A stretch of DNA of 64,000 bases, from NCBI RefSeq assembly GCF_024611995.1, contig NZ_CP102509.1:6324001-6388000 (forward strand), written 5' to 3'. The translations under genes were made by a program, and so were the position numbers. Below the pieces are notes generated by a model. That model was not told the DNA's origin, searched no databases, and saw only the letters and a list, made by a program, of their open reading frames with translations. Every line of letters begins with the position of its first letter. Within the stretch, counting starts at the first letter, position 1. Shown piece after piece: positions 12,546 through 16,386 of the stretch. Origin of the DNA: Streptomyces sp. NBC_00162 (lineage in GTDB: Bacteria > Actinomycetota > Actinomycetes > Streptomycetales > Streptomycetaceae).

Positions 12546-12633
12546 CTCGGAGCCTGTCAGTAGGGTTGGGTCTCAGCCGCAGGTACACGCTGCGCCCCCG
12601 TTGTCGGGGCGGGCTATGGAGAGGGGACAGCGC

Positions 12634-13212
12634 GTGACGGTCAACATGACCAAGGGTCAGGCCATCAGTCTGCAGAAGGCGGACGGGGGCACGCTGACCG
12701 CGGTCCGGATGGGCCTCGGCTGGCAGGCGGCCAAGCGCCGCGGGCTGTTCGGCTCGCGGACCCGGGAGATCGACCTGGACGCGTCGGCGGTGCTCTTCGC
12801 CGACAAGCAGCCGGTGGACGTCGTCTTCTTCCGGCACCTGCAGAGCGACGACGGCTCGGTCCGGCACACCGGCGACAACCTCGTCGGCGGCGTCGGCCAG
12901 GGCGGGGACGACGAGGCCATCCTCGTCGACCTGCAGCGCGTGCCGGTGCACATCGACCAGATCGTCTTCACGGTGAACTCCTTCACCGGCCAGACGTTCC
13001 AGGAGGTGCAGAACGCGTTCTGCCGCATCGTCGACGAGACCAACGGCCAGGAGCTGGCCCGCTACACCCTCGACGGTGGCGGCCAGTACACCGCGCAGAT
13101 CATGGCGAAGGTGTCCCGCGCGGGCGCGGGCTGGCAGATGACGGCCCTCGGCAACCCGGCCAACGGCCGTACGTTCCAGGACCTGATGCCGGCGATCCTG
13201 CCGCACCTGTAA
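12634..13212 (+). CDS. TerD family stress protein
   Basis: 193 residues, a complete TerD domain. N-terminal VNMTKGQAISLQKADGGTL, the VGLGW-type strand MGLGWQAAK, the calcium-binding acidic loop HTGDNLVGGVGQGGDDEAIL, and the C-terminal LARYTLDGGGQYTAQIMAKV are all present. TerD proteins bind calcium and belong to tellurite-resistance and general stress systems. The GTG at 12634 follows GAGAGGGGACA. The next gene is a TerD fusion 27 bases downstream, then TerC, so the three form a small ter group behind uvrB. Confidence 0.92.
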   Translation: MTVNMTKGQAISLQKADGGTLTAVRMGLGWQAAKRRGLFGSRTREIDLDASAVLFADKQPVDVVFFRHLQSDDGSVRHTGDNLVGGVGQGGDDEAILVDLQRVPVHIDQIVFTVNSFTGQTFQEVQNAFCRIVDETNGQELARYTLDGGGQYTAQIMAKVSRAGAGWQMTALGNPANGRTFQDLMPAILPHL

Positions 13213-13239: not shown

Positions 13240-15132
13240 ATGGCGGCCGAACTGGTCCGGGGGCAGAACCACGCCCTGTCCGAACACCGGGTGCGGATCA
13301 CGGTCTCGGCGGGCACCCCGGTGCTCGCCCTGGCCGCGCTCGCAGACGAGCGGGGCGCCGTGACCGGCCCGGAGGGGATCGCGCACCCCGGTGCGAGCGG
13401 CCTTCCGGGGGTCGAGGCACCCGGCCGGTCCGCGGACCGGCACCGGTTCGCCGTCGACCTCGACGCGGTGGCCGCCGAGGTGCACCGCGTCGGCGTCCTG
13501 CTCTCCCTGCCCCCGGGCGGTCCGGCCCGGTTCGGTGCCGTGGCGGCCTCGCACGTCGCCGTCACGGACATGGACGGCACCGAGCTGGCCGAGTACACCC
13601 TGACCGGGCTGGACGCCGAGACCGCCGTCGTCGCCCTGGAGCTCTACCGCCGCCAGGGGGCCTGGAAGGTCCGCGCCGTCGGCCAGGGCTACGCCGAGGG
13701 GCTCGCCGCCCTGTTCGCCGACCAGGGGCTCACCGCCCCCGCCGCCGCCGAGCTGGCGGCGCGCGTGCACGCCGGTGTGGCGGCGCCGGTGGCACCCGAT
13801 CCGGTGGTCCCAGTGTCCGGAAGCCCGTACGCGGGCACCCCCGGCCCCGCGCCCACTCCCGTCCCCACGCCGACGCCCTCGGCCTCGGCGGACACCACGA
13901 TCAGCTACGCCCACCCCCGGCGCCGCCCGGCCAGCACCGAGCCGCCCGAGCCCGCGCCGCGCACCGCCCCGGCGCAGGAGCCCGGCCAGCCCCCGAGGCC
14001 CGTCGCCGGGGACGCCAGCGGCTGGTCCATGGAGGAGCGGCTCTACAACCAGGTCTGGGGCATGTTCGAGGACCTGGCCCGCACGGTCGCCGCATACCGC
14101 AGTGCCGTCGAGTTCGCCGACTCCCGCATGGACCGCGAGCTCGACGAGGCCCTGTCCGACCCGCGCCACCGCCTCGGAGGATCCGGGAACGCCGCCCGCG
14201 ACACCGCCCGGGCCCGCCGCGAGGAGCTCGTCGCCCAGGCCCAGGCCGTCCTCGACCGGGACCTCGTCCAGCTGATCGCCGAGTCGGAGGTGGTCGAGCC
14301 CGCCCTGCCGGCCGCGTACGCCCGCTGGGACAACCCGGTCTGGCACGGCCGGTCGGCCGGGCTGCCCGAGGAGAACCCGCTGGCCCTGCGCCTGGGGGAC
14401 CTGTACCTGCCCGAGCGCCCCGACCTGCGGATCCCCATGCTGATGAGGCTCCCGCTGGAGCGCGGGCTCTGGATCGACAACGGCCGTACCGGCTCCGAGG
14501 CCGCGATGACCATGGACACCGACCGGCTGCGCCGGGCCGCCATGGACATGGCCGTCGCGCACGCGGTGCGGCTGCTCGCGGTCCACCCCGGCGACCGGTT
14601 CTCCGTCCACGTCATCGACGCGGCCGAGGCGGGGGCCGCCTCCCTGGCACCGCTCGTACGCGCCGGGGTGCTGGCCGGGCCGCCGGCCGCCGGGGCCGCC
14701 GCGGTCACCGAGACGCTGGCCCGGCTGACCAAGCGGGTGGACCTCGTACAGATGGCGGTGCGGGCAGGAGCCCCCGAGGACCTGCCGCCGGACCTGGACA
14801 CGGCCGACCAGCTGCTCCTCGTACACGACTTCCCGCACGGCTTCGACGACCGCGCCGTGACCCAGCTGCGCTACCTCGCCGACGAGGGGCCGGCGGTCGG
14901 CGTGCACCTGCTGATGGTCGCGGACCGTGACGAGGCCTCGGCCTACGGGCCGCTGCTGGATCCGCTGTGGCGCTCGCTCATGCGCCTGTCGCCGGTGCCG
15001 GACAACCATCTCGCCGACCCCTGGGTCCACCACGCCTGGACCTTCGAGCCGGACCTGCCCCCGCAGGGCAGCCGGGTCCTTGAGCAGGCGCTGGACCGGG
15101 TGGCGGAGGCCCGGCGGCGCGCCCGCCCGTGA
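13240..15132 (+). CDS. TerD domain fused to a degenerate FtsK/HerA-like ATPase domain
   Basis: 630 residues in three parts. Residues 1-165 are a divergent TerD fold (LVRGQNHALSEHRVRI, FAVDLDAVAAEVHRVGVLLS, AEYTLTGLDAETAVVALELY), lacking the acidic calcium loop. Residues 170-258 are a Pro/Ala linker, and 260-350 are helical. Residues 380-620 resemble the SpoIIIE/FtsK motor core in outline: LGDLYLPERPDLRIPMLMRL, then GRTGSE (415-420) where a motor has GxTGSGKS, a Walker-B-like QLLLVHDFPHGFDD (524-537), and GVHLLMVADRDEA (554-566) like the GxHLxxATQR motif. The Walker A Lys is gone, so ATP hydrolysis is unlikely. The ATG follows GGGGGAGACGGGACG. It probably forms an operon with the TerD gene. 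The domain reading of the C-terminus is my inference. Confidence 0.7.
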   Translation: MAAELVRGQNHALSEHRVRITVSAGTPVLALAALADERGAVTGPEGIAHPGASGLPGVEAPGRSADRHRFAVDLDAVAAEVHRVGVLLSLPPGGPARFGAVAASHVAVTDMDGTELAEYTLTGLDAETAVVALELYRRQGAWKVRAVGQGYAEGLAALFADQGLTAPAAAELAARVHAGVAAPVAPDPVVPVSGSPYAGTPGPAPTPVPTPTPSASADTTISYAHPRRRPASTEPPEPAPRTAPAQEPGQPPRPVAGDASGWSMEERLYNQVWGMFEDLARTVAAYRSAVEFADSRMDRELDEALSDPRHRLGGSGNAARDTARARREELVAQAQAVLDRDLVQLIAESEVVEPALPAAYARWDNPVWHGRSAGLPEENPLALRLGDLYLPERPDLRIPMLMRLPLERGLWIDNGRTGSEAAMTMDTDRLRRAAMDMAVAHAVRLLAVHPGDRFSVHVIDAAEAGAASLAPLVRAGVLAGPPAAGAAAVTETLARLTKRVDLVQMAVRAGAPEDLPPDLDTADQLLLVHDFPHGFDDRAVTQLRYLADEGPAVGVHLLMVADRDEASAYGPLLDPLWRSLMRLSPVPDNHLADPWVHHAWTFEPDLPPQGSRVLEQALDRVAEARRRARP

Positions 15133-15224
15133 CGGGAGGCGGCAGGCCGATGACCTGCCGCTGACCAGTTCTTGGGACTCCCTTTACCTTATCGGCCTCC
15201 GACGGGTACCCTGGTGACCGCGGA

Positions 15225-15395
15225 GGGGAGTATTCCTGCTTTCCTGCTACGGCGTGCCCGTCAATACGGACCACTGCGGCTCCATGAGCGCAGCCGGTCC
15301 CGGGGCGTCGGCCCACGGCCTCCAGGCCGCCCGGGTGGAAGAGACCTCCGGCAGCGATGACGCTGACGAAGTGCTGAGCCATCCGCCGGAGGCGT
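15225..15395 (+). ncRNA. Probable yybP-ykoY manganese riboswitch upstream of TerC
   Basis: The 260-base leader has no gene but carries the landmarks of the yybP-ykoY family. GGGGAGTA lies at 15225-15232, GTCAATACGG at 15260-15269, and GGTGGAAGAGACCTCC near 15334-15349. Stem-forming segments lie between, and the element ends just before the GGAGG of the TerC gene. This riboswitch class senses Mn2+ and commonly controls TerC-type membrane proteins, which fits exactly. The boundaries are approximate. Confidence 0.7.
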
Positions 15396-15402
15396 GTTTA
15401 CC

Positions 15403-16386
15403 GTGGAAGTTTCCTGGACCCTGTGGGCGCTGACCATTCTCGGTCTGTCCCTCCTCATCGGCGCCGATTTCTTCATCGGCCGCAAACCCCACGACGTATC
15501 GATCAAGGAAGCGGGCACCTGGACGGTCGTCTGGATCGTCCTCGCCGGACTCTTCGGCCTCGGCCTGTGGTTCTTCGGGAACGGTCAGGCCTCCCAGGAG
15601 TTCTTCGCGGGCTTCATCACCGAGAAGTCCCTGAGCGTGGACAACCTCTTCGTCTTCGTCCTGATCATGGCGAAGTTCGCGGTGCCCTCACACCTCCAGC
15701 AGCGCGTCCTGCTCGTGGGCGTGCTGATCGCCCTCGTCCTGCGCGCCATCTTCATCGCGGCCGGCGCGGCGATCATCGCCAGTTTCTCCTGGGTCTTCTA
15801 CATCTTCGGCGCGTTCCTGATCTACACCGCGTGGAAGCTGATCCAGGAGGCCCGCAAGGACGAGGAGGAGGACGAGTTCGAGGAGAACCGCCTGCTCAAG
15901 TCCGTCGAGAAGAAGTTCGGCGTCGCCGACCGGTACCACGGCACCAAGCTCTTCATCCAGAACAACGGCAAGCGCGTCCTGACCCCGCTGATGGTCGTCA
16001 TGCTCGCCATCGGCACCACCGACGTGCTGTTCGCGCTCGACTCCATCCCCGCGATCTTCGGCCTGACCCAGGACCCGTACATCGTCTTCACCGCCAACGC
16101 CTTCGCGCTGATGGGCCTGCGCCAGCTGTACTTCCTGATCGGCGGCCTGCTCAAGAAGCTGGTCCACCTCAGCTACGGCCTGTCGATCATCCTGGGCTTC
16201 ATCGGCGTCAAGCTGGTGCTGCACGCCCTCCACGAGAGCGGGCTGCACGTCCCGGTCATCTCGATCCCGGTCTCCCTGGGCGTCATCTGCGCTGTCCTGG
16301 TCATCACCACGATCACCAGCCTGATGGCCTCGAAGAAGCAGGCGGCGGCCGAGGCCGCCGCCCGCCCGGAGAGCATCGACGCCTGA
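15403..16386 (+). CDS. TerC family membrane protein (metal exporter)
   Basis: 327 residues with eight or nine membrane segments. TerC landmarks: LLIGADFFIGRKPHDVSIKE, EKSLSVDNLFVFVLI with the conserved acidic intramembrane site, and the matching second-half site TTDVLFALDSIPAIFGLTQD. A charged cytoplasmic loop KDEEEDEFEENRLL lies between the halves. TerC/Alx proteins export Mn2+ and other metals and are tied to tellurite resistance. I chose the GTG at 15403 (MEVSWTLW) because GGAGG is ten bases before it; the GTG at 15394 is only one base from that site. It is controlled by the riboswitch-like leader and follows the TerD pair. Confidence 0.92.
   Translation: MEVSWTLWALTILGLSLLIGADFFIGRKPHDVSIKEAGTWTVVWIVLAGLFGLGLWFFGNGQASQEFFAGFITEKSLSVDNLFVFVLIMAKFAVPSHLQQRVLLVGVLIALVLRAIFIAAGAAIIASFSWVFYIFGAFLIYTAWKLIQEARKDEEEDEFEENRLLKSVEKKFGVADRYHGTKLFIQNNGKRVLTPLMVVMLAIGTTDVLFALDSIPAIFGLTQDPYIVFTANAFALMGLRQLYFLIGGLLKKLVHLSYGLSIILGFIGVKLVLHALHESGLHVPVISIPVSLGVICAVLVITTITSLMASKKQAAAEAAARPESIDA

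What the first reader, a model, noticed from the sequence alone, without database searches (positions are those of the whole stretch)
13240..15132. TerD domain joined to a pseudo-FtsK/HerA ATPase
Seen: an N-terminal TerD-like fold without its acidic calcium loop, a Pro/Ala linker, helices, and a C-terminal third laid out like an FtsK/SpoIIIE motor but with GRTGSE instead of GxTGSGKS (415-420), a Walker-B-like LLLVHDF at 525-531 and GVHLLMVADR at 554-563. Known: TerD and TerC belong to tellurite/stress systems often proposed to touch DNA processing. Inferred: an ATPase-dead adaptor, perhaps binding an active FtsK/HerA protein or a DNA end, delivered by the TerD domain. It is adjacent to uvrB, a canonical TerD gene and a riboswitch-controlled TerC gene.
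Basis: partly seen in the sequence, partly recalled or inferred. Interest (0 to 1): 0.75.

Follow-up and report, generated by a model that had tools for sequence, protein, structure and literature searches.

The report
Stress protein carrying a dead motor
A soil-bacterium stress protein joins a TerD stress domain to a copy of a DNA- or protein-pumping motor that has lost its ATP-binding loop; the pair looks like an old, retained part of the bacterial Ter stress system whose job has yet to be tested.

Summary
Window 13240-15132 (+) encodes 630 aa: a TerD-type N-domain lacking the acidic loops, a disordered Pro/Ala linker, a helical hairpin and a C-terminal RecA-like domain. The model (mean pLDDT 84.9) matches EccC/EssC and FtsK, less well HerA. 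GRTGSE sits at the P-loop position; 0 of 326 pooled homologue rows have a Walker A. The domain is homologous to the first, already degenerate module (D1) of ~800-1300 aa FtsK/SpoIIIE-like proteins, which keep a Walker A after it in 26 of 28 examined. All 31 fusions in a 56-row tree lie on one side of a supported branch (98/99), so one origin is likely. A TerD gene lies directly upstream in 22 of 23 fusions outside Streptomyces; in the Nocardia family 5 of 13 loci hold Ter biosynthetic genes nearby. Most likely it is a non-catalytic scaffold of the actinobacterial Ter stress system. Partnership with a related active motor is weakened: none was found in the host genome, and one in only 1 of 47 fusion-bearing genomes, in capped searches. 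A new variant of a known kind; function is inferred, not shown.

The parts
13240..15132 (+). TerD-pseudoFtsK/EccC fusion gene, 630 aa
13240..13728 (+). TerD-like N-domain, residues 1-163, acidic segment missing
13786..13950 (+). disordered Pro/Ala-rich linker, residues 183-237
   Evidence: pLDDT under 50
14029..14304 (+). helical hairpin, residues 264-355
   Evidence: model helices H264-306 and H315-355; mean top-residue frequency 0.90 for 259-357 in Streptomyces rows
14320..15126 (+). RecA-like pseudo-motor domain, residues 361-629
14482..14499 (+). degenerate P-loop equivalent GRTGSE, residues 415-420
   Evidence: between strand E410-413 and helices H420-423/H427-448; maps through D1 to the Walker A of D2; 0 of 326 rows with Walker A
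14812..14832 (+). Walker-B-like strand LLLVHDF, residues 525-531
   Evidence: strand E523-531; D530 invariant in the 52-row alignment A4
12616..13212 (+). canonical TerD gene directly upstream, acidic segment kept; likely partner (start codon uncertain, 12601 or 12616)
   Evidence: Pfam TerD E 6.4e-43; a TerD gene is the neighbour in 22 of 23 non-Streptomyces fusions
15394..16386 (+). TerC integral membrane protein, next gene downstream
   Evidence: Pfam TerC E 4.9e-53; next gene in 80 of 80 Streptomyces loci; not seen beside non-Streptomyces fusions
15213..15392 (+). conserved structured leader RNA before terC
   Evidence: no Rfam match

Best explanation
A non-catalytic scaffold or adaptor subunit of the actinobacterial Ter stress system. 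Shown by sequence and model: a TerD-type domain without the acidic segment is tethered by a flexible linker to a helical hairpin and a RecA-like domain that is homologous to the non-catalytic first module (D1) of soluble FtsK/EccC-like proteins; it lacks a P-loop, and its gene stays next to a TerD gene. Inferred: the N-domain docks on the TerD product encoded next door (and, in Streptomyces, near the TerC membrane protein); the hairpin plus pseudo-motor domain then acts as an oligomerising or docking platform for a client, doing the structural work that D1 presumably does in the long relatives, without ATP hydrolysis. The client is unknown.
For: Fold: 361-629 to EccC/EssC/FtsK. Homology: module profile A2 to EccC5 in PDB sequences, whole-sequence E 5.5e-5 (best single stretch only 0.019); 11 fusion rows against D1 modules 99.7% probability, pairwise E 2.8e-26; D1 against D2 94.3%, E 1e-7; direct weak hits to D2 of L147 and L157, conditional E 2.8e-6. 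No Walker A in 326 of 326 module rows nor in 23 of 23 non-Streptomyces fusions, whereas 26 of 28 longer relatives have one after the module (not L022 and L152). Single branch for all 31 fusions, 98/99. TerD directly upstream in 22 of 23 fusions in three families and TerC next downstream in 80 of 80 Streptomyces loci. In L198 it ends a tight array of seven genes with C-C_Bond_Lyase, PRTase_2-TRSP, StiP-PELOTA, two unassigned genes and a tandem TerD; 5 of 13 examined loci in that family hold the PRTase/StiP gene family, 7 of 13 if one of the unassigned families counts.
Against: No interaction was tested; gene adjacency is indirect. TerC was not found beside the non-Streptomyces fusions compared with the window's genes. 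In Streptomyces the gene is not beside the Ter biosynthetic genes: in the host a StiP-PRTase gene is near 5.866 Mb, about 0.47 Mb away, and uvrB there is not a Ter gene. Biosynthetic genes were not recognised in the loci of the two other families. One fusion (L183/L200) has no TerD neighbour. 80 Streptomyces loci are close kin and count as few independent events. Scaffold is the default reading of a dead enzyme.
Confidence: 0.6

Rival explanations
1. Ligand sensor: the pseudo-motor pocket binds a nucleotide-like Ter signal (or a common nucleotide) without hydrolysis and passes the state to TerD.
For: The Ter system is described as making nucleoside/nucleotide derivatives that TerB/TerD might sense (PMC7824862, one passage). 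PRTase/StiP genes sit near the fusion in 5 of 13 loci of one family. D530 on the Walker-B strand is kept in A4.
Against: The P-loop-equivalent loop is the least conserved part of the domain when all rows are pooled (0.606 mean top-residue frequency, against 0.744 for the hairpin and 0.772 for the Walker-B strand), unlike a selected pocket; within Streptomyces alone it is not unusual (0.867 against 0.82-0.97 for the other parts) (which pooled three TerD neighbours with 326 module rows).
Confidence: 0.17
2. One reading: an adaptor that caps or recruits an active FtsK/EccC-type motor, as D1 may pack on D2 in the long relatives.
For: The module is physically joined to a Walker-A-bearing module in 26 of 28 longer relatives. 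Four of those lie beside WXG100-like genes, as EccC does.
Against: No second copy in the host. Of 47 fusion-bearing genomes only G689 had a long relative with Walker A; G486 had a 743-aa relative without Walker A; searches were capped. It could still bind the ordinary FtsK or EccC.
Confidence: 0.13
3. DNA-repair accessory protein tied to UvrB/UvrA.
For: UvrB is in 80 of 80 and UvrA in 50 of 80 Streptomyces loci, with 8 kb or less on either side.
Against: No UvrB match in the five non-Streptomyces fusion loci compared with the window genes, and no neighbour shared with the window other than TerD and the fusion in 19 such loci.
Confidence: 0.05
4. Cryptic ATPase with an unusual nucleotide-binding loop.
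For: RecA-like fold with a Walker-B-like Asp.
Against: No Walker A in 326 of 326 rows; the loop differs between genera.
Confidence: 0.05

Closest known systems
TerD family (PF02342; structures 3ibz, 2kxt)
   Same: N-domain sequence and fold
   Different: acidic segment missing; the C-terminal part is another fold
EccC/EssC type VII secretion ATPases (4nh0, 4n1a, 4lya, 5fv0; EccC5 7np7)
   Different: one module only, no Walker A, no membrane segment by a simple hydropathy scan
FtsK/SpoIIIE motor (PF01580; 6t8o, 2ius)
   Different: no PF01580 match, no P-loop
HerA (9x1m; SIR2/HerA 8wld)
   Different: lower match than FtsK and EccC
Soluble ~800-1300 aa FtsK-like proteins with degenerate D1 and a Walker-A module after it (L140, L142, L147)
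   Same: D1 plus preceding helices homologous over most of the module
   Different: the fusion keeps D1 only and has TerD; separate branch
FtsK domains predicted inactive in vWA-MoxR conflict systems (PMC7159879, passages seen)
   Same: FtsK domain predicted inactive in a stress/conflict setting
   Different: another system; no vWA or MoxR gene was recognised among the neighbours scanned here

Membership tests
TerD family | PF02342 match over the curated cut-off | tested here: met
   70.4 bits against 25.3, residues 64-160 only
TerD family | TerD fold | tested here: met
Calcium-binding TerD | acidic segment (DLDAS, GDN..GDDE) of canonical members (as Ca ligands: recalled) | tested here: not met
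   absent in P0001 and, in its GDN..GDDE part, in three other fusions; kept in the upstream TerD; binding itself not measured
FtsK/SpoIIIE superfamily motor (active) | Walker A GxxxxGK[ST] | tested here: not met
   0 of 326 module rows
FtsK/HerA/EccC fold family | RecA-like core | tested here: met
   model and fold search
FtsK/HerA/EccC fold family | sequence homology, directly or through intermediates | tested here: met
   strong only through D1
PF01580 FtsK_SpoIIIE | Pfam match | tested here: not met
   no match at E up to 1
EccC (type VII secretion) | membrane segments and several ATPase modules | tested here: not met
   no segment by a simple hydropathy scan; one module
EccC (type VII secretion) | WXG100 partner gene | tested here: inconclusive
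   WXG100-like genes beside four long relatives, below Pfam's cut-off; neighbours of the fusions were not all scanned
Ter system | linkage to TerD, TerC and Ter biosynthetic genes | tested here: met
   TerD in four families; TerC only in Streptomyces; PRTase/StiP genes in 5 of 13 loci of one family
Ter system | stress or tellurite phenotype | not testable with these tools
   needs a mutant

The most novel reading that the evidence does not exclude
The protein is the mechanical arm of the Ter response: on a Ter signal, TerD-anchored pseudo-motor domains assemble with, and jam, ring translocases of the FtsK/EccC/TcpA class (own or incoming), stopping DNA or protein transfer by dominant-negative insertion rather than by enzymatic action.
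Probability: 0.08. Interest if true: 0.88.

Novelty: new variant of a known kind. Interest (0 to 1): 0.55.

Why it matters
Source databases call this widespread Streptomyces and Nocardia protein 'TerD family protein' or 'export associated protein', and Pfam and NCBIfam leave its C-terminal part without a domain. Recognising a motor-derived, motor-dead module that has been kept beside TerD across four actinobacterial families gives the Ter system, whose mechanism is unsettled, a concrete and testable structural component, and is a clear case of the D1 module of a multi-module motor living on its own.

Tried and rejected
Direct PDB search with the single C-terminal sequence found nothing; only the profile A2 did, and weakly per stretch. 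A2 holds two D1 rows of long relatives (L022, L023) beside 11 fusion rows. NCBIfam gave no family. Direct profile comparison of the fusion module with D2 was weak (21%, E 0.001), so the P-loop mapping rests on the step through D1 and on the order of strand, loop and helix in the model. Rfam did not recognise the terC leader. Literature: the paper that would be most to the point (PubMed 23044854, recalled as Anantharaman, Iyer and Aravind 2012) and a Streptomyces terD paper (PMC4325092) are not held, so an earlier description of this fusion is not excluded; the listings (titles and starts of abstracts) name no such fusion. Considered and rejected: vWA-TerY or nuclease neighbours (none recognised among the neighbours scanned, which were a selection); a UvrB link (Streptomyces only); pseudogene (open frame and conservation across genera).

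Rows dropped or faulty: the row L019 was read on the wrong strand and is ignored. L102 was dropped from the full-length alignment because the stretch given held stop codons (repeated without it). Of 20 loci fetched, L143, L145 and L156 gave no module hit; with HMMER's filters off L143 and L145 do, each with a Walker A after it, and so does L187, missed; L156 is too weak to count (E 0.006). The pool held three TerD neighbours that are not fusions. In one search a simple motif labelled 8 true fusions as 'other' and L022 as 'fusion'; the counts of 31 and 25 rows given here are read from the tree itself, with L180 counted as a fusion by its place and TerD neighbour although its own N-domain gave no profile hit. 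In one search a TerD match inside the fusion itself was found in 18 of 20 (not L135, L180; L139, the same gene as L135, has a weak one below the cut-off). Of the longer relatives L022 and L152 have no GxxxxGK[ST]; L022's second module still matches PF01580.

Full report
Observation. Pfam recognises only the second half of a TerD domain (64-160, E 1.8e-19); NCBIfam recognises nothing. The database search with residues 250-630 found 3951 homologues at E up to 0.001 among 7997 scored candidates; the 120 listed are 89-99% identical, and those with a source name are called mostly 'TerD family protein', some 'export associated protein', from Streptomyces. A second search from a Nocardia-family relative found 189, of which the 120 listed are of the same kind, named ones from Nocardia.

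Where the module comes from. A phylum-wide search of 296 genomes found 16 with a match at E up to 0.01, among them frames of 1125 and 970 aa (L022, L023) in which the module is followed by another that matches PF01580. A 13-row profile (A2) searched in 296 genomes of the class matched in 81. Twenty loci were fetched. 17 of 20 had the module locally, 19 with HMMER's filters off. Longer relatives with a Walker A after the module: 11, 11, L143, L145 and L187, and L023; without it: L022 and the 743-aa L152; so 26 of 28. The same profile weakly finds D2 of L147 and L157 and D3 of L140. Profile comparison: 11 fusion rows to D1 99.7%, E 2.8e-26; D1 to D2 94.3%, E 1e-7, which places the D1 counterpart of GRTGSE on the Walker A of D2; fusion module directly to D2 only 21%, E 0.001. 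So the P-loop is missing in D1 already, and the fusion most likely recruited a non-catalytic module; it is not an enzyme that died recently.

Loss of catalysis. Of 326 pooled module rows (database proteins and locus copies together) none has GxxxxGK[ST]. The loop is IDNGRTGSEAAM in 136 of 201 Streptomyces rows, varies in the rest, and is of another type (such as VDTESSAAVAPV) in the other genera. The Walker-B-like strand keeps its Asp in Streptomyces and Nocardia rows, although DFPHG itself is not kept in all families.

One origin. In a tree of 56 modules the 31 fusions stand on one side of a branch with 98/99 support, and the 23 proteins with Walker A, L152 and L022 on the other. The tree is unrooted, so this shows one side of a branch and makes one origin likely. 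Fusion-type frames (by module match and length) occur in 24 of 28 genomes of the window's genus in the class sample, in 17 of 81 genomes of the Nocardia family, 2 of 61 of a third family and 4 of 61 of a fourth.

Neighbourhood. In 80 Streptomyces loci (the best 80 of 577 confirmed) TerC is the next gene downstream in 80 and UvrB is present in 80; a TerD call is directly upstream in 70, and in 9 of the other 10 the simple gene finder had put an unmatched opposite-strand frame there. Outside Streptomyces a TerD gene is directly upstream on the same strand in 22 of 23 fusions: 19 of 20 and L141, L153, L154. The exception, L183, has none in the wider stretch either (L200). In several genera that neighbour is itself a short TerD plus a canonical TerD. 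In L198 the fusion follows six tightly packed genes: one unassigned, C-C_Bond_Lyase, PRTase_2-TRSP, StiP-PELOTA, one unassigned, tandem TerD. The PRTase/StiP family is present in 5 of 13 loci compared in that family, and 7 of 13 hold it or the second unassigned family; 13 of the 17 fusion loci of that family were compared. This fits the description of the Ter system as nucleoside-derivative biosynthesis, TerB/TerD sensing, TerC membrane parts and sub-membrane structures (PMC7824862, one passage read). Against it: TerC was not seen beside the non-Streptomyces fusions, and in the host the StiP-PRTase gene is about 0.47 Mb away, near other TerD genes and a DUF475/TerC gene.

Does it serve a related motor? 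The host genome has no second copy of the module at E up to 10 with 87 of 87 candidates scored. Among 47 fusion-bearing genomes (24+17+2+4) one (G689, L187) has a long relative with Walker A and one (G486, L152) a 743-aa relative without. Only 7 candidates per genome were scored (E up to 0.001), and up to 25-34 (E up to 1e-8), so these are lower bounds. It does not exclude binding to ordinary FtsK or EccC.

Expression. An S. coelicolor protein SCO1965, named 'export associated protein' in one paper and counted among tellurium resistance proteins in another, was seen in proteomes (PMC3293853 and PMC7244524, passages seen). That it is the orthologue rests on the shared name and on recall, not on a call.

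Verdict. The anatomy is firm; that the protein is a non-catalytic Ter scaffold is the best inference (0.6). It is a new variant of a known kind: known domains in a combination that Pfam and NCBIfam do not describe, with a consistent gene linkage across four families. An earlier mention in a paper that I could not read is possible.

Noticed in passing
window 15213-15392: Leader of terC is a conserved structured RNA (GGGGAGTA in 75 of 80 Streptomyces loci, with GAGACC after it in 65; 4 of 33 predicted pairs with a compensatory change among 19 rows). Recalled resemblance to the yybP-ykoY manganese riboswitch, but no Rfam model reaches its threshold there.
   Followed up: partly
L010:97-1785 (+), host genome C1 near 7.676 Mb: A protein kinase domain followed by a stretch weakly like the pseudo-motor domain (E 0.3; kinase by Pfam); database protein P0244 joins a kinase to an FtsK_SpoIIIE domain.
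   Followed up: no
L142:9582-9845, L143:9474-9737, L148:5341-5601, L140:4729-4998: WXG100-like small genes beside long FtsK-like proteins; no membrane segment by hydropathy in the three of these scanned (L140, L142, L148), suggesting an EccC-like system without a membrane anchor (WXG100 matches below Pfam's cut-off).
   Followed up: partly
L151:8661-11587, L157:7822-9060, P0243: Other long FtsK-like relatives sit beside Hsp70, TPR or DnaJ-TPR genes, or are fused to TPR repeats.
   Followed up: no
L152:6031-8205: A 725-aa relative of the module without Walker A and without any Pfam match, in a genome of the window's genus that also has the fusion.
   Followed up: no
L154:7818-9898, L191:3809-6075: AIM24-type genes recur near the TerD/fusion pair in five loci of the Nocardia family (Pfam on L154 and L153 members).
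   Followed up: partly
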